From: Rhodococcus sp. OK519 | Lineage (GTDB): Bacteria > Actinomycetota > Actinomycetes > Mycobacteriales > Mycobacteriaceae | Reading direction: 5' to 3' | DNA length: 64,000 bases | Assembly: GCF_003051005.1 (NCBI RefSeq) | Contig: NZ_QAOW01000004.1 | Location: forward strand, 310,001 to 374,000 | Shown: positions 30,031 through 39,655 of the stretch, piece after piece | Layout: every line of letters starts with the position of its first letter | Position numbering within the stretch: the stretch's first letter is position 1 | The notes under the pieces: generated by a model | Databases searched by the model: none | What the model was told of the DNA's origin: nothing | Seen by the model: only the letters and a program-made list of their open reading frames with translations | Translations under genes and position numbers: made by a program

Positions 30031-32406
30031 TTAGTCGGCGGACCGCGACCGATCGCCGGTGCCGGGGTGCCGCCTGGCGGGCACCCGTCCGGCAGGCTGT
30101 GTCACCACCGGCCCCGCCGGCGGATGCACCGTCGGCATCACGCGAACCTCGTTGTGGTGCAACGTGATCGACGTACCGTCGTGCTGCAGCGTCAACTCGT
30201 CGCCCACCACGAGGTGGTACCGCGTCTCGACGTGGTCGATCTCCACGCGCAAACGACATCCCGCGGCGGCCACCCCGAACGCGAGGCGATCGATGCCCTG
30301 CGGCAGCGTCGGCCGGAACGTGATCCCGGACCGACGTCGGCGCGCGCCACCGAATCCTTGGACGAGGACGATCCAGATGCCGGCGAGCGAGGCGAGGTGC
30401 AGGCCGTCGCTGGTGTTGTGTTCCAGGTTGTGCAGGTCGATCAGCGCCGTCTCCCCGAGATAGTCGAGGGCGAGATCGACGGCGCCGACGTCGGCGGCGA
30501 CGACCGCCTGACTACACGCCGACAGCGACGAGTCCCGCACCGTGAGCCGCTCGTAGTACGCGAAGTTCCGCGCCCTCTGCTCGTCCGTGAACTCGTCGGG
30601 GACCCACTGCATCGCCAGCACGACGTCCGCCTGCTTGACCACCTGCTTGCGGTACAGGTCGAAGTACGGAAAGTGCAGCAGCAGCGGATACTGCGCAGGC
30701 GACGTCGACGCGAAGTCCCAGACCTGGCGATCGGTGAATCCGGAGGACTGCGGATGCACGCCGCGCGGCCCGTCGTACGGGACGAACATTCGCGCCGCGG
30801 CGGTGCGCCAGCCACCGAGTTCCTGGTCGGTGATCCCGAGATCGGGCATCCGCTCGCGGTGGCATTCGACCACCGCGACCGCCGATTCCAGATTCTCGCG
30901 CGCCATCAGGTTCGTGTAGAGGTTGTTGCGCACGAGCGCGCTGTACTCGTCCGGGCCGGTGACACCGTCGATGCGGAACGACCCCTCCTCGTCGAAGTAT
31001 CCGAGCGAGTGCCACAGCCGGGCCGTCTCGACCAGCAGGTCCAGGCCGACGGTCCGTTCGAATTCGCCGTTGCCGTTGGTCCGGATGTAGCCGATCGCCG
31101 CGCGCGCGATCGCCGCGTTGACATGGAAGGCGGCCGCACCCGCCGGCCAGTAGCCGCTGCACTCCTTGCCGGTGATCGTCCGCCACGGGAAGGCTGCCCC
31201 CTCGAACCCCAGTTGGCGGGCCCGGTTGCGGGCCTGATCGAGCGTCGAATGCCGCCAGCGGAGCGCGTCGGCCACGGCCCGCGGCAGGACCGACGTCAGC
31301 ACCGGCAGCACGAACATCTCGGTGTCCCAGAAGGCATGACCGTCGTATCCGCGGCCCGTCAGCCCCTTCGACGCGATCGCGGTGCCCTCGGCGCGAGCCG
31401 ACGCCTGCAGGATGTGGAACAGCGCGAAGCGCACCGCCTGTTGGATCTCGGGGTCGCCGTCGACGGTCACGTCGGCGAGCGCCCAGAACGCGTCGAGGTA
31501 CGCGCGCTGCTCGGAAACCAGCCCGTCCCAGCCACTCTCGCGGGCGAGCGTCAACTCCCCCGCCACCTGGTCCCGCATCGCCGGGGCGGTGCGGCGCGCC
31601 GACCACGCGTGCGACACATACTTGACCATCCGCACGCGTTCGCCCTGCGACAGTTCCGACGTGATCGTCACCCGGCCCTGATCGGGGTAGCTCTCGACGT
31701 CGATGTGCACGCCCGGTCCGGTCACCTCGTGGTCCATCGCAACGGCGATCCGCAACCCACTCTGGGCCGTGGTGTGAGTCAGTTGGACGAGGGCCTCGTG
31801 GTGGAAGTTCTCCTCCGCGAAGAGCGGTTCCGCCAGGACCGCGGCCGCACGCGGGTCCGCCTCCTGCTGCGGCATCGGCTCGTTCGCGACGAGTTCCGAC
31901 TGCAGGACCACGCGGGCGGGGCCGTCCAACGCCTCGACGACGTAGTCGATCGCCCCGACCGTGCGTTGCGTGAACGACACAAGTCGTGTCGTGGTGACCC
32001 GGACGGTCCGGCCCGCGGGCGAGCGCCACTCGACCTTGCGCCGCAACACTCCGGCCCGCAGGTCCAGTTCCTGTTCGTGCACCAGGATCTTGCCTCGGCG
32101 GACGTCGAACGGTTCGTCGTCGACGAGCAGGCGCACGATCTTGCCGTCGGTGACGTTGATGATGGTCTCGCCCGAATCGGGGTAGCCGTAGCCGGGCTCC
32201 GCGTACGGCATCGGCCGTACCTCGTACACACCGGCCAGGTAGCTACCGGGCAGGCCGTGCGGGTCCCCCTCGTCGAGGTTGGCCCGCCAGCCCAGATGCC
32301 CGTTCGCGAGCGCGAACAACGATTCCGTCTGTGCGAGGACGTCGAGGTCGAGGGTCGTCGCGCGGAGACTCCACGGTTCGACGGTGAAGGCGGGATGGGT
32401 GATCAT
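30031..32406 (-). CDS. GH65 family disaccharide phosphorylase
   Basis: 791 aa from the ATG at 32406 ([12 protein letters not shown]); an open extension to 32643 lacks homology. The order is the family one: N-terminal beta-sandwich, linker, (alpha/alpha)6 barrel with [15 protein letters not shown], the catalytic acid Glu in GVTGPDEYS (about residue 490), and a C-terminal beta-sheet. GH65 enzymes split alpha-glucosides such as trehalose, maltose or kojibiose with phosphate to beta-glucose 1-phosphate; the substrate cannot be fixed here. No beta-phosphoglucomutase gene is adjacent, unlike many GH65 loci. It lies between the alcohol dehydrogenase and rpe on the same strand. Confidence 0.88.
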
Positions 32407-32479
32407 GCGGCCGTCCTCCCACTCACGGGCCGGCCCACTGCGATCGGGCCGGTGAGTCCACGCTAGGACAGTGGCGCGC

Positions 32480-33496
32480 TCACGGCACGAGAACGGCGGC
32501 GCCGCCGAACACTCCACCGGCGAGGTCGGCGAGCGCCTTGTCTGCCGCATCGAGCGGATATCGATGCGCGCTGACCCGCAGGCGGTGCTGCTGCGCGAAC
32601 GCGAGGAACTCGCGCGCATCGTCCCGGGTGTTCGCGGTGACACTGCGCAGTTGGCGCTCCCGGAACAGGTGACGCTGGTAGTTCAGCGGCGGGATGTCGC
32701 TGAGATGAATGCCGGCAACCGCCAGCGTGCCGCCCGCGTCGAGCGCCTCGAGCGCCGGAAGCACCAGGTCACCGGCAGGGGCGAACAGAATCGCCGAATC
32801 CAGCGGCTCCGGGGGCGGATCGGCTGCCCCCTGAACGGATGCGGCGCCCAGGCTGAACGCAAGTTCGCGGGCCTCGGCCCCGCGAGTCATCACGTGCACC
32901 CGCGCGCCCCGGGCGAGTGCGACCTGCGCAGTCAGATGCGCGCTGCCCCCGAACCCGTAGATGCCGAGACTGCCGCCGTCAGGCAGATCGGCCCGCTGCA
33001 ATGAGCGATAGCCGATGATGCCCGCGCACAGCAGCGGAGCCAGTTCCACGACCGGGTAGCCGGTCGGCAGTTCGAGGGCGTAGTCGGCGGGCACCGTCGT
33101 GTACTCGGCGTAACCCCCGTCGGCGTCCCACCCGGTGTACGTCGAATAGGGGCACAGGTTCTCGTCGCCGCGAACGCAGTACCGGCAATGCCCGCAGGTG
33201 CCCCGCAGCCACGCGACACCGACCCGCTGCCCCACCGAGAATCGACCACCGGCCTCGTCGCCGACACCGACGACCTCCCCGATCACCTCGTGCCCGGGCA
33301 CCACGTTGAGCCGGTGCGGCCGCAGCTCGCCCTCGACGACGTGCAGATCGGTTCGGCAGACACCGCATGCCAGCACTCTGACCAGGAGTTCCTTGCTCGT
33401 CGGCCGCGGGAGCAGCTCGCGCCCCAGATGCAGCGGACGATCGGTGAGCGGGCCCGGTCTCGTGGTCCGCCAGGCGCGCATGGTGGTGGCCGGCAT
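32480..33496 (-). CDS. Zinc-dependent alcohol dehydrogenase (AdhA-like)
   Basis: A medium-chain dehydrogenase with catalytic zinc ligands in [15 protein letters not shown] and GHEVIGEV, and the structural zinc lobe [15 protein letters not shown]. The Rossmann motif is unusual ([16 protein letters not shown]), the form seen in the branch of zinc ADHs that includes mycobacterial AdhA. Three starts are possible (ATG at 33481, 33496 or 33532), none with a strong ribosome box; 33496 is a compromise. 338 aa from there. It is divergent from the phosphoketolase across 250 bp, so the two may share regulation. The true alcohol or aldehyde substrate is unknown. Confidence 0.85.
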
Positions 33497-33747
33497 CGTT
33501 GTACTCGAGGTGCGCGAGTTGTCAGTCCGCATACAAGATCCGTACTTCGTCGCGAAGGCGCCGGCGGGACCGGTACACGGCCTCTTCGGAGAGTGCCGCG
33601 GTCGCCACTTCCAGGATGCCTGGTTCGACGCGCCCACAACAAGGGGGAACCGGAGGAACCGGTCGGCCCGGCGGCAGATCTCATGCGCAGACGGGAACCA
33701 GCAGTCAGGATGGAGACACCTTCGCCCCCCGAACGGAGGACCGCTCG

Positions 33748-36135
33748 ATGGCCACAAGCCCGAACGACCTCGCAACCGACGACGAACTCCGACTGCTCCA
33801 CCGGTACTGGATGGCGGCCAACTATCTGACGGTCGCGCAGATCTACCTGCGCGACAACGTCCTGCTCCGACGACCGCTGGTGCCGCCGGACATCAAACCC
33901 CGCCTGCTCGGGCACTGGGGCACGAGTCCCGGCCTGTCACTCGTGTATGCGCACCTCAACCGGCTCATCCGACGCACCGACGCGGATGTGCTGTTTATCG
34001 CCGGGCCCGGTCACGGCGGCCCGGCCGTCGTGGCGAACACGTATCTGGAGGGCACGTATTCGCAGTTGTATCCGGATGTGACACCGGATGAGGCGGGGCT
34101 GCGCAGGCTGGCGCGACAGTTCTCGACCCCGGGCGGAATCCCGAGCCATTCCGGTGTCGAGACTCCGGGCTCGATCAACGAGGGCGGCGAACTCGGCTAT
34201 TCGCTCGCGCACGCCGCCGGCGCCGCGATGGACAATCCGGATCTGATCGTCGCATGCGTCGTCGGCGACGGCGAGGCCGAGACCGGTCCCCTGTCCGCTT
34301 CGTGGAAGGTGCCGTTCTTCCTCGACGCCACGAGGGACGGCGCCGTGCTGCCGATTCTGCACCTCAACGGCTACAAGATCTCCGGACCGACGGTGCTCGG
34401 GCGCCGCACCGACGACGAGGTGCTCGCGGTGATCCGCGCCTTCGGGTGGGACGCGGTGCTCGTCTCCGGCGACGATCCGATGCAGGTGCACCGCGACCTG
34501 GCCGAAACCCTCGACCGCGCCCATACCGCGATCACCCGAATCCGCCGCGACGCCCGCGACTCGGGCTTGCCGGACCGGCCGCGCTGGCCCGCTATTGTGC
34601 TCCGCACCCCGAAGGGCTGGACGGGCCCGGACGTCGTCGACGGCGTCCAGGTGGAGGGGACGTTCCGCGCGCACCAGGTCCCCATCGCCGACGTCCGCGA
34701 GGATCCCGCCCACCTGCTCAGGCTCGAGGAATGGATGCGCTCGTACGCACCGGACGACCAGTTCGATCCGCAGGGCCGCCTGGTACCCGAACTCGCGGCG
34801 CTCGCCCCGACGGGCGATAAACGGATGGGCGCGAACCCGCACGCGAACGGCGGCCGACTTCTACGCGACCTCGACCTTCCCGCGGTGGCGCGGTACGCCG
34901 TCGACGTGCAGGCGCCCGGTGCGACCCACCACGAGACGACGCGTCCACTGGGCGAGTTGCTGCGCGACATCTACGTCGCCAACCCGGACAACTTCCGACT
35001 GTTCTGCCCCGACGAGACGAACAGCAACCGACTCGGCGCGGTGTTCGAGGTGACCGACCGCTGCTCCGCCGGGACCGTCGTCCCGGGCGACGATCACGTC
35101 GGTCGCCACGGCCGCGTGATGGAGGTGTTGTCGGAGCACCTGTGCCAGGGCTGGCTCGAGGGCTATCTGCTCACCGGGCGGCACGGCCTGTTCGCGACCT
35201 ACGAGGCATTCGCCATGGTGAGCGCGTCCATGACGATCCAGCACACCAAGTGGCTCGAACGGGCCCGCTCGCTCGACTGGCGCGCACCGGTCGCGAGCCT
35301 GAACATCCTGCTCACCTCCACCTGTTGGCGCAACGACCACAACGGGTTCTCACACCAGGGTCCGGGGCTGATCGACACGGTGCTCTCCCTGTCCGGCGGT
35401 GTCACCCGCGTCTATCTGCCTCCGGATTCCAACTGTCTGCTGGTGGTGGCGGAGCACGTGTTCGCCGAGCGGGACTGCGTCAACCTGCTCGTCGTCGACA
35501 AGCAGTCGCATCCGCAGTACCTCCCACTCGAGCAGGCCCGCGAGCACGTCGACGCGGGCGCCTCGATCTGGGACTGGGCGGGCACCGAGAACACCGAGGG
35601 CTCCCCCGGCGCCGAACCCGACATCGTGCTCGCGTGTGTCGGCGACGTGCCCACCGAGGAGACGCTCGCGGCCGCGGCACTACTGCGCGGACACGTCCCG
35701 GATCTGCGGGTGCGGGTCGTCAACGTCGTCGACCTGATGTCGATGGCGCCGCCCGACGTGCATCCGCACGGGCGCTCGCACGAGGACTTCGCGCACTTGT
35801 TCACCGAGGACGTCGACGTCGTCGTCGCGTGGCACGGCTACGCCCGCGCCTTCCACCAGTTGCTGCACGGCCGGATGAACCCCGATCGGTTCCACGTCCG
35901 CGGCTATACCGAGCAGGGTTCGACGACGACGCCCTTCGACATGGTGGTGCTCAACCACATGAGCCGCTACCACCTCGCGATCGAGGCGCTGCGACGATCC
36001 ACTCGGACGCCGGCCGGCGCCGAGGCCCTGTCCGGGTACTGCGAGCGCATGCTCGAACGCCATCACGGATACGTGCGCGAGCATCTCGAGGACATGCCCG
36101 AGGTCCGGAACTGGGTGTGGCCCGAACCTGTGTGA
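33748..36135 (+). CDS. xfp: Phosphoketolase (xylulose-5-P / fructose-6-P)
   Basis: A thiamine diphosphate enzyme that splits xylulose 5-phosphate (and often fructose 6-phosphate) with phosphate into acetyl phosphate and an aldose phosphate. 795 aa, the usual length. It shows [29 protein letters not shown], the ThDP motif [23 protein letters not shown], and the C-terminal [14 protein letters not shown]. The ATG at 33748 has GGAGGA at 33735-33740; the frame upstream is not coding-like. It opens a bypass from pentose phosphates to C2 units beside a complete pentose phosphate pathway in the same window. Confidence 0.96.
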
Positions 36136-36228
36136 TCAGCAGTTGCCGTGCAATCGACCACCGAATGTGCAAGATTCGACACAGATTATCTCCCGAAGAC
36201 GCCTGATATCTTTTCGAGAGGAGCACCT

Positions 36229-36999
36229 GTGTCCTGTAACGCAAACCCCGACCCGCGCTCCGCTCACCGGACGGGTCCCGCCCGCGCGCCGAAGTGCGTC
36301 GTCACAGTCGTCCCGGCCCACGACGAGCGAGATCTTCTCCCGCGCTGCCTGACAGCATTGGACGCCGCCGCACGACGCTGCCCGGTGCCGGTGCGGACGA
36401 CGGTCGTCCTCGACGCCTGCACGGACGGCACCGAGGCGGTGATCCCCGAGGGCGTAGCTCGGATCGACGTCCGAGGCCGCAACGTGGGCGCCGCTCGGGC
36501 CGCCGGCTTCGCCGCGAGTGGATGCGTCGGCCGTGACGACGTGTGGTTCGCGACCACGGACGCGGATTCGGTCGTGCCGGAATCCTGGTTCGTCGACCAG
36601 TTGGTGTTCTGGGCCGACCACGACGCGATGGTGGGCACCGTGCGCGTCGATTGGACGCATCACACCGCTGCGACCAGAAGTCGATACGAACGTCGGTATC
36701 GCCGACGCGACGGCTCGGTGCACGGTCACGTACACGGGGCGAACCTCGGGATCCGCGCGGACGTGTACGGCGCCCTCGGTGGCTTTCACGCCCACGCCAC
36801 CGGCGAGGACGTGGACCTCGTCGACCGTCTGCAGCGCGCCGGGCACCGCATCGCGTGGGACGAGCAGAGCATCGTCTCGACCTCCGATCGCCGCGATCCC
36901 CGGGCACCGGGGGGCTTCGGCCAGTACCTGCACTCCGTCGCCGCGGCGAGCGGATCATCGGGCCTCGTGGTCAGCGCTGCGGCCGTGGAGGAACGATGA
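36229..36999 (+). CDS. Family 2 glycosyltransferase of the four-gene cassette
   Basis: 256 aa from the GTG at 36229, with AGAGGAG just upstream. A GT-A fold is visible: the nucleotide-binding start VVTVVPAHDERDLLPRCL, RGRNVGAARAAG, the metal-binding DADS (DxD motif), and an acceptor-side GEDVDLVDRL. There are no membrane helices, so this is not a NodC- or chitin-synthase-type processive enzyme. Donor and acceptor are unknown. Its stop overlaps the next start by 4 bases. The 93-bp gap after xfp is richer in A/T and may hold the cassette promoter, though no clean -35/-10 pair could be assigned. Confidence 0.85.
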   Translation: MSCNANPDPRSAHRTGPARAPKCVVTVVPAHDERDLLPRCLTALDAAARRCPVPVRTTVVLDACTDGTEAVIPEGVARIDVRGRNVGAARAAGFAASGCVGRDDVWFATTDADSVVPESWFVDQLVFWADHDAMVGTVRVDWTHHTAATRSRYERRYRRRDGSVHGHVHGANLGIRADVYGALGGFHAHATGEDVDLVDRLQRAGHRIAWDEQSIVSTSDRRDPRAPGGFGQYLHSVAAASGSSGLVVSAAAVEER

Positions 37000-37943
37000 C
37001 GATGAGTTCGGTTACCGTCCATCCGAACGTGACACCCGACGACGCCACCGGTTGGCCGTTGCCGGGGTCGGGCGGCACGAGGAGCAGGTGGCAGGCGCTC
37101 ACCGACGCGGCGCGCAGCGATCTCGTCGGGGCTCGAATCCTCGAGGCACACGCGGACGCGGTCGCGATCCTCGCCGAACTGCGGGGTCCGCAACCCCGCC
37201 CGGGTGAACTCTGGGGCGTGTGGGCCGCAGAGCCGCCCTCACCGGTTCTCACTGCACACCGCACCGCATCGGGTTTCGTGCTCGACGGACGCAAGCCCTG
37301 GTGTTCGGGTGCGCACACGTGCACGCACGCGCTCGTGACCGCGCGGCTCGAGGGTGAACGGGCGCTGTACGCGGTCGATCTGCGAGGACCCGACACAGTG
37401 GCGGTGCCCGACACGTGGCATGCGGTCGGCATGGCGGCGAGCGACTCCGGGGCTGTGGATTTCGTCGGCGTTCCCGCCGTCCGGGTCGGGGATCCCGGCG
37501 CGTACCTGACCCGCCCCGGATTCTGGCACGGCGCGATCGGCGTGGCCGCCTGCTGGTACGGCGGTGCCCTCGCCGTCGCGGACCAGCTCCGGCGTCGCGC
37601 GGGCGACGATCCCCACCGGCTGGCCCATCTGGGGGCGGTGGACGCCGCGCTGTACTCGGTGGAGTGCGTCCTCGATGTCGCGGCCGCGGAACTCGACGCC
37701 GATCCGACCGATGCGCACGCCGGCCGGATCCGTGCACGACGGGTGCGCGCCGTCGCCGAGGCCGCCGCGACCGAGACGCTCGACCGGGTGGGACGAGCGC
37801 TGGGCGCCGGGCCGCTGTGCGACAACCACGCCCACGCGCAGTTGGTGGCCGACCTCACCGTGTATCTCCGCCAGAGTCACGCAGAACACGACCTCGCCGA
37901 TCTGGGAGCCGCCCTCACCCGACCCGAAAGGAGCATCCTGTGA
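36996..37943 (+). CDS. Acyl-CoA dehydrogenase-like protein of the cassette
   Basis: 315 aa from the ATG at 36996 (GGAGGA at 36987-36992; ATGA overlap with the previous stop). It resembles acyl-CoA dehydrogenases in the middle beta domain (LWGVWAAEPP, LDGRKPWCSGA) and in the C-terminal helical domain (RPGFWHGAIGVAACWYGGAL). It is about 60-70 residues shorter than usual, mainly at the N-terminal helical domain, and I cannot place the usual catalytic Glu. FAD binding is plausible. It may oxidise a non-CoA substrate or have another role. Linked to PIG-L, GT2 and NodS-like genes. Confidence 0.78.
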   Translation: MTMSSVTVHPNVTPDDATGWPLPGSGGTRSRWQALTDAARSDLVGARILEAHADAVAILAELRGPQPRPGELWGVWAAEPPSPVLTAHRTASGFVLDGRKPWCSGAHTCTHALVTARLEGERALYAVDLRGPDTVAVPDTWHAVGMAASDSGAVDFVGVPAVRVGDPGAYLTRPGFWHGAIGVAACWYGGALAVADQLRRRAGDDPHRLAHLGAVDAALYSVECVLDVAAAELDADPTDAHAGRIRARRVRAVAEAAATETLDRVGRALGAGPLCDNHAHAQLVADLTVYLRQSHAEHDLADLGAALTRPERSIL

Positions 37944-38722
37944 CGGCGAACGCGCCCCGGATCTCGCATCCTCGAACAACGTCCGAACGGTTCGGCGCCG
38001 TCCCCGTAGAGGCCGGCGGGACCCCCGAATCCGAGTGGGCCGGGAACACCTCCTTCGCCCACCTCGACGTCCACACATGCCCGGAACTTCTCGTCGCCGC
38101 TCCGCATCCCGACGACGAGGTGCTGGGCGTCGGAGCGCTCGCGTCGGAGCTCGCGGCGCGCGGCACCCCGGTGTCCATCCTCTCCGTCACCGACGGTGAA
38201 GCGTCACACCCGGACTCACCGACTGTCACACCCGACGCGCTCGCAGCGATGCGCCGTACCGAGTCCGAACGTGCCGCGCAGCGCCTCGGGTTGCCCGCCC
38301 CCGACCGACTCGGACTGCCCGACGGCTCCGTCTCGGATCACGAGAAGGAACTCGCAGAGATGATCACCGAACGCCTGCGCCCCGGCGCATGGTGCGCGGC
38401 ACCCTATCGACACGACGGGCATCCGGACCACGAGTCCGTCGGGCGGGCTGCCGCATACGCCGCCCGGCAGGCGGGGGCGGTGCTGATCGAGTACCCGATC
38501 TGGTTGTGGCACTGGTCGTATCCGCTCGATCCGTCCGTTCCGTGGCACCGCGCGAGAACCTTCCACCCGACGGGCCGTCGACAGCGACTCAAGCGGGACG
38601 CCGTTGCCGAGTTCACCAGCCAGACAGCGGACCTGTCCCCCGACCCCGCCGATCGCGCGATCCTGCCACCGCGGATCCTCGACAGACTGCTGCGCGACCA
38701 CGAGACGGTGTTCGTCCCGTGA
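37940..38722 (+). CDS. PIG-L family deacetylase of the cassette
   Basis: 260 aa from the GTG at 37940, overlapping the previous stop (GTGA) with AAAGGAG upstream. It carries the zinc motif APHPDDEVLG (about residues 54-63) and the second ligand in HDGHPDHESVG, as in MshB and other N-acetylglucosamine deacetylases. It probably removes an acyl group from an N-acyl amino sugar conjugate. Its family also includes mycothiol enzymes, but the neighbours here are not mycothiol genes. Cytosolic; no signal peptide. Confidence 0.85.
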   Translation: MTANAPRISHPRTTSERFGAVPVEAGGTPESEWAGNTSFAHLDVHTCPELLVAAPHPDDEVLGVGALASELAARGTPVSILSVTDGEASHPDSPTVTPDALAAMRRTESERAAQRLGLPAPDRLGLPDGSVSDHEKELAEMITERLRPGAWCAAPYRHDGHPDHESVGRAAAYAARQAGAVLIEYPIWLWHWSYPLDPSVPWHRARTFHPTGRRQRLKRDAVAEFTSQTADLSPDPADRAILPPRILDRLLRDHETVFVP

Positions 38723-39321
38723 ACCGAATGCCCGACGACTACTTCGACCGGATGTACGCCGACTCGGCGGATCCCTGGGGATTCGGCGAGCGCTGGTACG
38801 AGGAACGCAAGCGCGCCCTCACCGCGGCGATACTGCCCCGTCGACGATTCCGCTCGGCATTCGAGCCGGGTTGCTCGATCGGCAATCTCACCGAGGTACT
38901 GACACCGCGCTGCGAGCACGTCCTCGCCACCGATGTCGCCGACGAGGCACTCGACCGCGCGCGGTCGCGGCTCGGGGAATGCAATGTCTCGTTCCGACGC
39001 TGGGCGCTGGGCGACCCGTGGCCGGCCGAGACCTTCGATCTCGTCGTACTCAGTGAGGTCGCGTACTACCTGCACCCCGAGGAACTGACCCGGGCGCTCG
39101 GTGACCTGGTCGAGCACCTGGACGACGACGGGGTGCTCCTCGCAGCGCACTGGCGCCACCCGGTCCCGGACTACCCGCAGACCGGGGACGCCGTCCACAC
39201 CGTGCTGGCGGCGCAGTCGGGCCTCGCGCGCACCGCGCGGTACGCCGACCCGGACGTTCTGATCGAGACCTTCGAGCCATCCGTCCGCTCCGTGGCTGCC
39301 CGCGAGGGCCTGCTGGGATGA
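38719..39321 (+). CDS. NodS-like SAM-dependent methyltransferase of the cassette
   Basis: 200 aa; the GTG at 38719 overlaps the PIG-L stop (GTGA), and an ATG at 38728 is the alternative. The N-terminus DYFDRMYADSADPWGFGERWYEERKRAL is cut here to its hallmarks: DPWGF then WYEERKR, the NodS-family signature. The SAM-binding strand FEPGCSIGNLTE follows, then the post-II motif LSEVAYYL. NodS N-methylates the deacetylated end of rhizobial lipo-chitooligosaccharides; here the acceptor is unknown but could be the amine freed by the PIG-L enzyme. Confidence 0.85.
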   Translation: MNRMPDDYFDRMYADSADPWGFGERWYEERKRALTAAILPRRRFRSAFEPGCSIGNLTEVLTPRCEHVLATDVADEALDRARSRLGECNVSFRRWALGDPWPAETFDLVVLSEVAYYLHPEELTRALGDLVEHLDDDGVLLAAHWRHPVPDYPQTGDAVHTVLAAQSGLARTARYADPDVLIETFEPSVRSVAAREGLLG

Positions 39322-39394: not shown

Positions 39395-39655
39395 GTGAAC
39401 AAGATGACCGCGAAGGCGTTGTACAAGCCGCTGTCTCTCGCCACCGGAGTGCTCGGCGGCCTGTTGGCCGGCGTCGCGTTCCGGGAGATCTGGAAGCGGG
39501 TCGGCGACGACGACCATGCACCGGACGCGACGGATCTCGAGCGCTCGAACCGGGAAGTTCTGGTCGCCGCGGCGCTGCAGGGCGCCATCTTCGCCGTGGT
39601 CAAGGCCGCGGTCGACCGCGCCGGCGCCAAGGGATATCGCGCACTGACGAACTGA
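39395..39655 (+). CDS. DUF4235 small membrane protein
   Basis: 86 aa, GTG start at 39395 with GAAGGGAAA upstream. Two hydrophobic segments (about residues 8-26 and 57-73) flank an acidic loop. The pattern YKPLSLATGVLGGLLAG, FREIWKR and LQGAIFAVVKAAVDR matches the actinobacterial DUF4235 family, of unknown function. It lies 73 bp after the cassette and just before a terminator; it may be co-transcribed but need not be part of it. Confidence 0.85.
   Translation: MNKMTAKALYKPLSLATGVLGGLLAGVAFREIWKRVGDDDHAPDATDLERSNREVLVAAALQGAIFAVVKAAVDRAGAKGYRALTN

What the first reader, a model, noticed from the sequence alone, without database searches (positions are those of the whole stretch)
36229..39321. 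Four overlapping genes (GT2, acyl-CoA dehydrogenase-like, PIG-L deacetylase, NodS-like methyltransferase) form an uncharacterised biosynthetic cassette
All four starts and stops overlap by exactly 4 bases, so the proteins are probably made in fixed ratio and work together. The combination parallels the logic of Nod factor synthesis (glycosyl transfer, N-deacetylation, N-methylation) but replaces the acyltransferase by an acyl-CoA dehydrogenase-like protein and uses a soluble glycosyltransferase. A methylated amino-sugar conjugate or modified glycolipid is a reasonable guess. The product is not known to me. The enzyme families are seen in the sequence; the pathway is inference.
Basis: partly seen in the sequence, partly recalled or inferred. 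Interest (0 to 1): 0.82.

Follow-up and report, generated by a model that had tools for sequence, protein, structure and literature searches.

The report
Stress-linked amino-sugar gene cassette
Four overlapping genes form a cassette found in at least four bacterial phyla, often beside genes for surviving stress, and they most likely build a small methylated amino-sugar compound that nobody has yet identified.

Summary
The cassette is real: GT2, ACAD-fold flavoprotein, PIG-L deacetylase and NodS-like methyltransferase, joined by three 4-base overlaps. Such overlaps are ordinary (10 of 38 other window pairs), but linkage is strong: all four genes lie together in 76 of 80 actinobacterial scan loci and in 16 of 19 plasmid loci fetched, across four phyla, in varying order, with PIG-L and methyltransferase fused in three relatives.

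The 'acyl-CoA dehydrogenase' lacks catalytic Glu at both known sites (0 of 14) and leans towards flavin monooxygenases. One Rubrobacter cassette has a chitin/peptidoglycan-type deacetylase in place of PIG-L, supporting N-deacetylation of an amino sugar.

Neighbours suggest general stress: catalase, trehalose synthesis (otsA-cassette-otsB in two Comamonas), and a SigF-type promoter in 8 of 8 Nocardia, though not elsewhere and not in the window. In A. baumannii a four-gene operon of this kind falls 31-62-fold together with otsAB and catalase (PMC5660220).

Best reading: stress-linked synthesis of an N-methylated, flavoprotein-oxidised amino-sugar glycoside; donor, acceptor and product are unproven.

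The parts
36229..36999 (+). GT2-family glycosyltransferase, 256 aa, no predicted membrane helix (GTG start; an alternative GTG lies at 36148)
36996..37943 (+). ACAD-fold flavoprotein, 315 aa, N-terminally shortened, without ACAD catalytic Glu; probable oxidase or monooxygenase
37940..38722 (+). PIG-L (LmbE) family N-deacetylase, 260 aa
   Evidence: PF02585 9.3e-25; HPDDE 56-60, D159 and HPDH 161-164 invariant in 17 of 17; nearest solved TT1542 and diacetylchitobiose deacetylases
38719..39321 (+). NodS-like SAM methyltransferase, 200 aa
   Evidence: PF05401 1.2e-16; profile hits PDB 4isc 224.7 bits and NodS 3ofj 99.7 bits, sharing DPW and E-x-x-YY
33748..36135 (+). Phosphoketolase (XFP), flanking gene seen only in near relatives; probably not part of the cassette (alternative start 33499)
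   Evidence: PF09364/PF03894/PF09363; found in 4 of 118 other loci searched, L031, L038, L039, L040, of which L031 and L039 are the same contig
39395..39655 (+). DUF4235 small hydrophobic protein, flanking gene, loosely linked
   Evidence: PF14019 1.7e-27; found in 9 of 118 other loci searched; hydropathy 2.14
30031..32643 (-). GH65-like (disaccharide phosphorylase-type) gene, nearby; relation to cassette open
   Evidence: tblastn 24% over 769 aa to the GH65 gene beside the Legionella lytica cassette, 3.9e-61

Best explanation
The four genes are a stress-linked biosynthetic operon. Proposed path: the soluble GT2 adds an N-acetylated amino sugar (most likely GlcNAc from UDP-GlcNAc) to a small soluble acceptor; the PIG-L enzyme removes the acetyl group; the NodS-like enzyme methylates the freed amine; and the ACAD-fold flavoprotein oxidises the product (amine or sugar carbon) rather than desaturating an acyl-CoA. 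The product would be a small N-methylated amino-sugar glycoside made alongside trehalose and catalase as a protectant. Shown: linkage, gene content, intact PIG-L metal motif, missing ACAD Glu, one CE4-for-PIG-L locus, excess of catalase and trehalose genes nearby, and parallel expression of a like operon with otsAB and catalase in a published Acinetobacter table. Inferred: donor, acceptor, order of steps, target of oxidation, protectant role.
For: Four genes together in 76 of 80 scan loci and 16 of 19 fetched plasmid loci, with changed order or strand and three PIG-L-MT fusions. Matched profile: MT in 22 and ACAD in 25 of 61 genomes, all 22 shared. CE4 deacetylase in place of PIG-L in Rubrobacter, with no PIG-L match on that plasmid. 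No ACAD Glu. No membrane helix by hydropathy. Catalase in 5 of 50 actinobacterial loci against 0.32 expected, and within 10 kb in 6 of 15 plasmids against 0.97; OtsB in 6 of 15 plasmids and within 4 kb of the cassette in all 6. SigF-type promoter in 8 of 8 Nocardia against 0 of 94 other genes. A. baumannii ACICU_02432-02435, listed as operon e, falls 31-62-fold with otsAB and catalase.
Against: No substrate, donor, acceptor or product is known. GT2 structure matches are generic (7-19% identity). The SigF-type motif is not enriched outside Nocardia (3 of 92 against 12 of 787, p = 0.2), is absent in the window, and Nocardia was picked out after seeing the hits. The window shows no catalase or ots gene with these queries. 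Four of 15 plasmids have no catalase, five more have one only far away, and 9 of 15 have no OtsB. 45 of 50 actinobacterial loci have no catalase in the stretch. The CE4 case rests on one locus. The Acinetobacter drop is in colistin-dependent mutants, so it shows parallel expression, not function. Some ACAD-like members also match true ACAD-type models (2 of 17 a desulfinase, 1 of 17 FadE), and VIA-align ranks true ACADs level with monooxygenases.
Confidence: 0.5

Rival explanations
1. The cassette modifies a cell-envelope or lipid-linked glycan: GT2 adds an amino sugar to a lipid or polymer, which is then deacetylated, methylated and oxidised.
For: Extra GT genes flank it in Novosphingobium and Sphingobium and a UDP-galactopyranose mutase plus GT in two Deinococcus; NodS-type MT and CE4 domains occur with GTs and an ABC transporter in Rhizobium leguminosarum; the A. 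baumannii operon drops in colistin-dependent mutants, at least one of them with lpxC disrupted.
Against: No cassette protein has a membrane helix by hydropathy; no flippase or transporter stood out as constant in the clusters and capped family lists; most actinobacterial loci hold just the four-gene core without extra GT seen (not searched exhaustively).
Confidence: 0.2
2. It makes a thiol or redox cofactor related to mycothiol or N-methyl-bacillithiol: amino-sugar glycoside, deacetylated, N-methylated, used against oxidants.
For: PIG-L is closest in NCBIfam to BshB1 (58.8 bits) and catalase neighbours suggest oxidative stress.
Against: Far below the BshB1 and MshB cut-offs (182.5, 224.35); GT is GT2, not the GT4 type of MshA/BshA (recalled); no cysteine-adding gene stood out among neighbours in the clusters and capped lists, which is not a search for one.
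Confidence: 0.1
3. The flavoprotein is an amino-sugar N-oxygenase (nitrososynthase-like), so the product is a hydroxylamine, nitroso or nitrone sugar and the methyl group sits on oxygen or carbon or is itself oxidised.
For: KijD3 and DnmZ, solved amino-sugar N-oxygenases, are among the Foldseek top 50 (ranks 29 and 32) and profile hits (5.6e-8, 7.5e-4).
Against: DszC and several ACADs score as well or better; no N-oxygenase active-site test was made.
Confidence: 0.13
4. The genes are clustered by chance or shared inheritance and have unrelated roles.
For: Each belongs to a large family; 4-base overlaps are common (10 of 38).
Against: Rearranged orders, fusions, four phyla, matched presence/absence (Fisher about 1e-13, relatedness ignored) and parallel expression of the four as one listed operon.
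Confidence: 0.02

Closest known systems
Nod factor backbone tailoring (NodC-NodB-NodS-NodA; pathway recalled)
   Same: Glycosyl transfer, N-deacetylation, N-methylation by a PF05401 enzyme sharing DPW and E-x-x-YY with NodS; a PF01522 (NodB-type) deacetylase stands in place of PIG-L in one Rubrobacter locus
   Different: GT2 small and soluble, PIG-L instead of NodB in the other complete loci, no gene annotated as NodA, an ACAD-fold flavoprotein instead; stress rather than symbiosis context
Bacillithiol, N-methyl-bacillithiol and mycothiol pathways (recalled)
   Same: Glycosyltransferase plus PIG-L deacetylase, and in N-methyl-bacillithiol an N-methyl group
   Different: GT2 not GT4, deacetylase far below BshB/MshB cut-offs, extra flavoprotein, no cysteine-adding enzyme in the core
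ACAD-fold flavin monooxygenases (DszC, SfnB, KijD3, DnmZ, MsuC) and ColB1
   Same: Fold and many of the best matches
   Different: 315 residues against about 370-400 in the solved chains; Gln293 where one HsaA-like protein (L140, so named by eye) has His; activity unknown
Acinetobacter baumannii operon ACICU_02432-02435 (PMC5660220)
   Same: Same four annotated gene types, in the order of the A. baumannii cassette read here; the ACICU proteins themselves were not aligned
   Different: Seen only as a down-regulated operon in an expression table; no function given in section 8, the one section read
PDB 4ISC methyltransferase
   Same: Member of the cassette methyltransferase family by profile, 224.7 bits
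   Different: Listed only as 'Methyltransferase'; substrate not given in the search listing

Membership tests
NodS (nodulation N-methyltransferase) | NCBIfam NF041650 equivalog cut-off 300 bits | tested here: not met
   63.2 bits
NodS (nodulation N-methyltransferase) | PF05401 family and DPW / E-x-x-YY residues seen in NodS 3ofj | tested here: met
   61.6 bits over cut-off 24; alignment
Acyl-CoA dehydrogenase | Catalytic Glu in the C-terminal EGT motif or at the upstream ER position (roles recalled) | tested here: not met
   Present in 7 of 7 own-genome ACADs aligned (4 EGT, 3 ER; 7 of the 8 fetched out of 54 matches), absent in 14 of 14 cassette proteins
Acyl-CoA dehydrogenase | ACAD fold | tested here: met
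ACAD-fold flavin monooxygenase | Curated equivalog score (SfnB 430.9, DszC 850) | tested here: not met
   36.6 and 20.7 bits; this excludes those equivalogs, not the wider class
ACAD-fold flavin monooxygenase | Nearest by fold and profile | tested here: inconclusive
   DszC first by Foldseek E-value, but VIA-align Z ties with true ACADs; of 17 members 11 match SfnB, 4 DszC, 1 HsaA, but 2 a CoA desulfinase and 1 FadE
PIG-L / CE14 deacetylase | HPDDE and HPDH metal-site motifs | tested here: met
   Invariant in 17 of 17
BshB / MshB | Curated cut-offs 182.5 / 224.35 | tested here: not met
   58.8 and 25.8 bits
Nod factor operon | NodA acyltransferase beside NodB/NodC | tested here: inconclusive
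   No gene named NodA among the annotated neighbours shown; no NodA model was run
MftF mycofactocin glycosyltransferase | TIGR03965 cut-off 280 | tested here: not met
   38.1 bits
General stress regulon | SigF/SigB-type promoter upstream | tested here: inconclusive
   8 of 8 Nocardia against 0 of 94 control genes, but 3 of 92 elsewhere and none in the window
Amino-sugar N-methylated glycoside pathway | Enzyme activity on a GlcNAc glycoside | not testable with these tools
   Needs assay

The most novel reading that the evidence does not exclude
The cassette makes a new class of stress metabolite: an N-methylated, possibly quaternary or N-oxidised, glucosaminyl derivative of trehalose or a related sugar, acting as a charged compatible solute or radical scavenger across four phyla, switched on by each lineage's own general stress regulator. 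The otsA-cassette-otsB arrangement in two Comamonas plasmids and otsB-GH65-cassette in Legionella lytica would then mark trehalose as the acceptor.
Probability: 0.2. Interest if true: 0.87.

Novelty: new variant of a known kind. Interest (0 to 1): 0.7.

Why it matters
A four-gene unit kept together through rearrangements in Actinomycetota, Pseudomonadota, Deinococcota and Cyanobacteriota, with an excess of trehalose and catalase genes nearby, should make something useful, yet no product was found in the paper searches made here. If it is a methylated amino-sugar protectant it would be a widespread stress metabolite that standard annotation hides behind the doubtful label 'acyl-CoA dehydrogenase'. 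The steps are few and the proteins look soluble, so it is directly testable.

Tried and rejected
Rejected: acyl-CoA dehydrogenase function for the second gene. Rejected: 4-base overlaps as proof of a unit by themselves. Rejected as unproven: Mycobacterium smegmatis MSMEG_1097, a strongly SigF-dependent group 2 glycosyl transferase (passages of PMC4694148, PMC7174638, PMC5445863; one search is the search). MSMEG_1094-1096 do not occur in the main text of PMC7174638 and no other MSMEG_109x in PMC4694148, so I could not tie it to the cassette. In those SigF papers LmbE and PIG-L do not occur.

Tried without result: EcfG-type motif upstream of plasmid cassettes (1 of the 7 loci printed); SigF-type motif in the window (none). 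The Pfam tally of 257 proteins around 20 loci (only the 25 commonest of 138 and of 134 families shown) gave a mixed picture (short-chain dehydrogenases 11, ANTAR 5, AMP-binding 4, catalase 3, LigD 2, Na/H antiporter 2) and was not run on a control. The stress-gene tblastn queries gave no hit in 13 control stretches, one of them only 7.5 kb. The first set of 'canonical' ACADs was picked as longest ORF and was mostly antisense; redone from Pfam coordinates. Neither the viral library nor the phage collection was searched.

Paper searches that gave no description of the cassette; led to PMC5660220. Papers listed were not opened, except PMC7174638. Limits: the genome-contig scan kept 80 of 569 confirmed relatives, the nearest ones, all Actinomycetota by title; of 69 plasmid records with an ACAD match I fetched 19 places, chosen by me from the 40 listed; chromosomal proteobacteria were not sampled. 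The stress families were chosen after seeing plasmid neighbourhoods and cluster lists, and related species are not independent.
Full report
Observation. The four ORFs are at 36229-36999, 36996-37943, 37940-38722 and 38719-39321 (+), with junctions ATGA, GTGA and GTGA. Pfam gives GT2, ACAD middle domain (just under the cut-off), PIG-L and NodS. Upstream is a phosphoketolase and downstream a DUF4235 protein; they accompany the cassette in near relatives but are found in only 4 and 9 of 118 other loci. None of the four has a membrane helix by hydropathy. By the closest named hits (Prescottella equi, 81%) the window comes from a Rhodococcus/Prescottella-like genome; the species is not established. 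In the same genus the cassette is accessory: 4 of 14 genomes, own included.

Linkage. I built HMMs from 16 or 17 sequences per gene (the window and relatives among L019-L038) and scanned loci. Of 108 loci (20 stretches from relatives, partly the HMM sources; 80 scan loci, none used for the HMMs; 8 plasmid loci; L031/L039 and L032/L064 are the same contigs by length), 99 hold all four genes within 7 kb of the ACAD gene: GT2-ACAD-PIGL-MT 62, ACAD-PIGL-MT-GT2 28, and 9 with other orders or inverted genes. Nine do not: four show ACAD alone (L021, L027, L030, L123) and five lack one or two genes (L069, L076, L080, L087, L120; L076 and L087 end at the contig). Of the 80 scan loci alone, 76 hold all four. 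PIG-L and MT are one frame in L022, L023 and L024. Of 19 plasmid loci fetched through the ACAD-like protein (L119-L136, L169, out of 69 matching records), 16 hold all four; L120 has a PIG-L annotated about 3 kb away that my profile did not pick up, L123 shows ACAD only and L136 only a weak partial ACAD. They include alpha-, beta- and gammaproteobacteria, Deinococcus and Nostoc. Of six further loci fetched through the methyltransferase or its hits (L163-L168), L164, L166, L167 and L168 hold all four, L165 has three with a different deacetylase, and L163 is a different module. In 61 relatives, the MT profile (E <= 1e-25) is in 22 genomes and the ACAD profile (E <= 1e-20) in 25; all 22 overlap, and the three ACAD-only genomes are G041 (fragment at a contig end), G048 (a piece of MT at the end of the stretch) and G059 (Fisher 1e-13, relatedness ignored). 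In a sample of 296 genomes of the phylum 40 match the ACAD profile at 1e-10, 31 of them above 90 bits.

The other enzymes. PIG-L metal-site motifs are invariant in 17 of 17, with nearest solved structures TT1542 and diacetylchitobiose deacetylases. The methyltransferase profile finds PDB 4isc (224.7 bits) and then NodS (99.7 bits). The GT2 model (pLDDT 89) matches GT-A enzymes including TarP/TarS with UDP-GlcNAc and heparosan synthase, at 7-19% identity, which does not fix the donor.

Deacetylase swap. On a Rubrobacter indicoceani plasmid the order is polysaccharide deacetylase, ACAD, MT, FAD oxidoreductase, GT2. ACAD, MT and GT2 score 118, 195 and 157 bits. The deacetylase is PF01522 at 3.6e-26, its best PDB matches being named xylanase/chitin deacetylase and peptidoglycan GlcNAc deacetylase, and the plasmid has no PIG-L match (the chromosome was not searched). 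In Rhizobium leguminosarum one protein joins GT2, NodS-type MT and PF01522; it is not the cassette, as no ACAD hit was found in that locus, but it repeats the same logic. Two unrelated deacetylase families in one slot argue for N-deacetylation of an amino sugar; this is one locus.

Stress context. Catalase: in 15 plasmid records, 11 have one and 6 have it within 10 kb of the ACAD-like gene (expected 0.97, P 6e-5; 2e-4 without one of two near-identical Acinetobacter islands). Of 50 actinobacterial genomes (50 of the 80 loci, picked for variety), 5 loci hold a catalase (L043, L048, L080, L082, L108) against 0.32 expected (P 2e-5; 3e-4 if the two mycobacteria count once); over all 80 it is 6, with L042. 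In L025 and L026 it sits between cassette genes. Trehalose phosphatase: 6 of 15 plasmids encode it (one copy broken by stops), in all 6 within 4 kb of the cassette (6e-5 after collapsing to three lineages). In both Comamonas the order is otsA, cassette, otsB, in Legionella lytica otsB, GH65, cassette. Ku or LigD genes are near in Bradyrhizobium and Novosphingobium, with Dps, Hsp20, CsbD or PA2169-type proteins in others. A SigF-type promoter (GTTT-N14-17-GGGTA; consensus GTTT-N14-19-GGGTA in PMC4694148, passages seen) precedes the cassette in 8 of 8 Nocardia loci with differing spacers and 0 of 94 other genes there, but only 3 of 92 against 12 of 787 elsewhere, and not in the window. PMC5660220 (section 8 read; other passages) lists ACICU_02432-02435 (glycosyltransferase, SAM methyltransferase, LmbE protein, acyl-CoA dehydrogenase-related protein) as operon e, down 31-62-fold in two colistin-dependent A. 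baumannii mutants together with otsA, otsB and catalase and some 30 other genes. The A. baumannii cassette I read (L164) has the matching order and scores 274/222/217/252 bits; I did not align the ACICU proteins themselves.

Mechanism. I infer glycosyl transfer, N-deacetylation, N-methylation and a flavin oxidation giving a small soluble glycoside. Trehalose as acceptor is possible but rests on a few lineages and could be co-regulation only.

Known or new. The enzyme families are known and the logic resembles Nod factor tailoring and bacillithiol/mycothiol synthesis (pathways recalled), but the curated NodS, BshB, MshB and MftF cut-offs and the ACAD Glu test are not met. The paper searches named under Tried and rejected found no description of the cassette or its product; one expression table contains an operon of the same four gene types.

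Noticed in passing
L125:7591-9954 and L135:6573-8921 (Deinococcus): The ACAD-like protein is fused behind about 400 residues without a Pfam match at 0.001 that by eye look like a GH-A type glycosidase (L125 only printed); D. radiophilus has an annotated ACAD-family gene of similar size.
   Followed up: partly
L163:4408-7410 (Rhizobium leguminosarum plasmid pSK03): A 1000-residue protein joins GT2, NodS-type methyltransferase and a PF01522 deacetylase beside GTs and an ABC transporter: a separate Nod-like module.
   Followed up: partly
L164 (Acinetobacter baumannii record NZ_CP077849.1): The cassette lies about 4.5 kb from a predicted aph(3')-Ia gene in a 3.66 Mb record that the plasmid database calls a plasmid; the size suggests a chromosome or mislabelled record.
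   Followed up: no
G031:C217:4642-5584: The ACAD-like gene is split into two overlapping frames, a frameshift or assembly error.
   Followed up: no
window 30031-36135: A GH65-like gene and a phosphoketolase sit on opposite strands just upstream of the cassette; a GH65 gene also lies next to the Legionella lytica cassette and in L081.
   Followed up: partly
M. smegmatis MSMEG_1097: A group 2 glycosyl transferase strongly dependent on SigF, lowered by a zinc chelator and listed in a spray-drying microarray table; whether it is a cassette gene is open.
   Followed up: partly
L123 (Methylobacterium sp. FF17 plasmid) and L027: Cassette-type ACAD-like proteins (162 and 375 bits) without the other three genes nearby, so the flavoprotein also occurs alone.
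   Followed up: no
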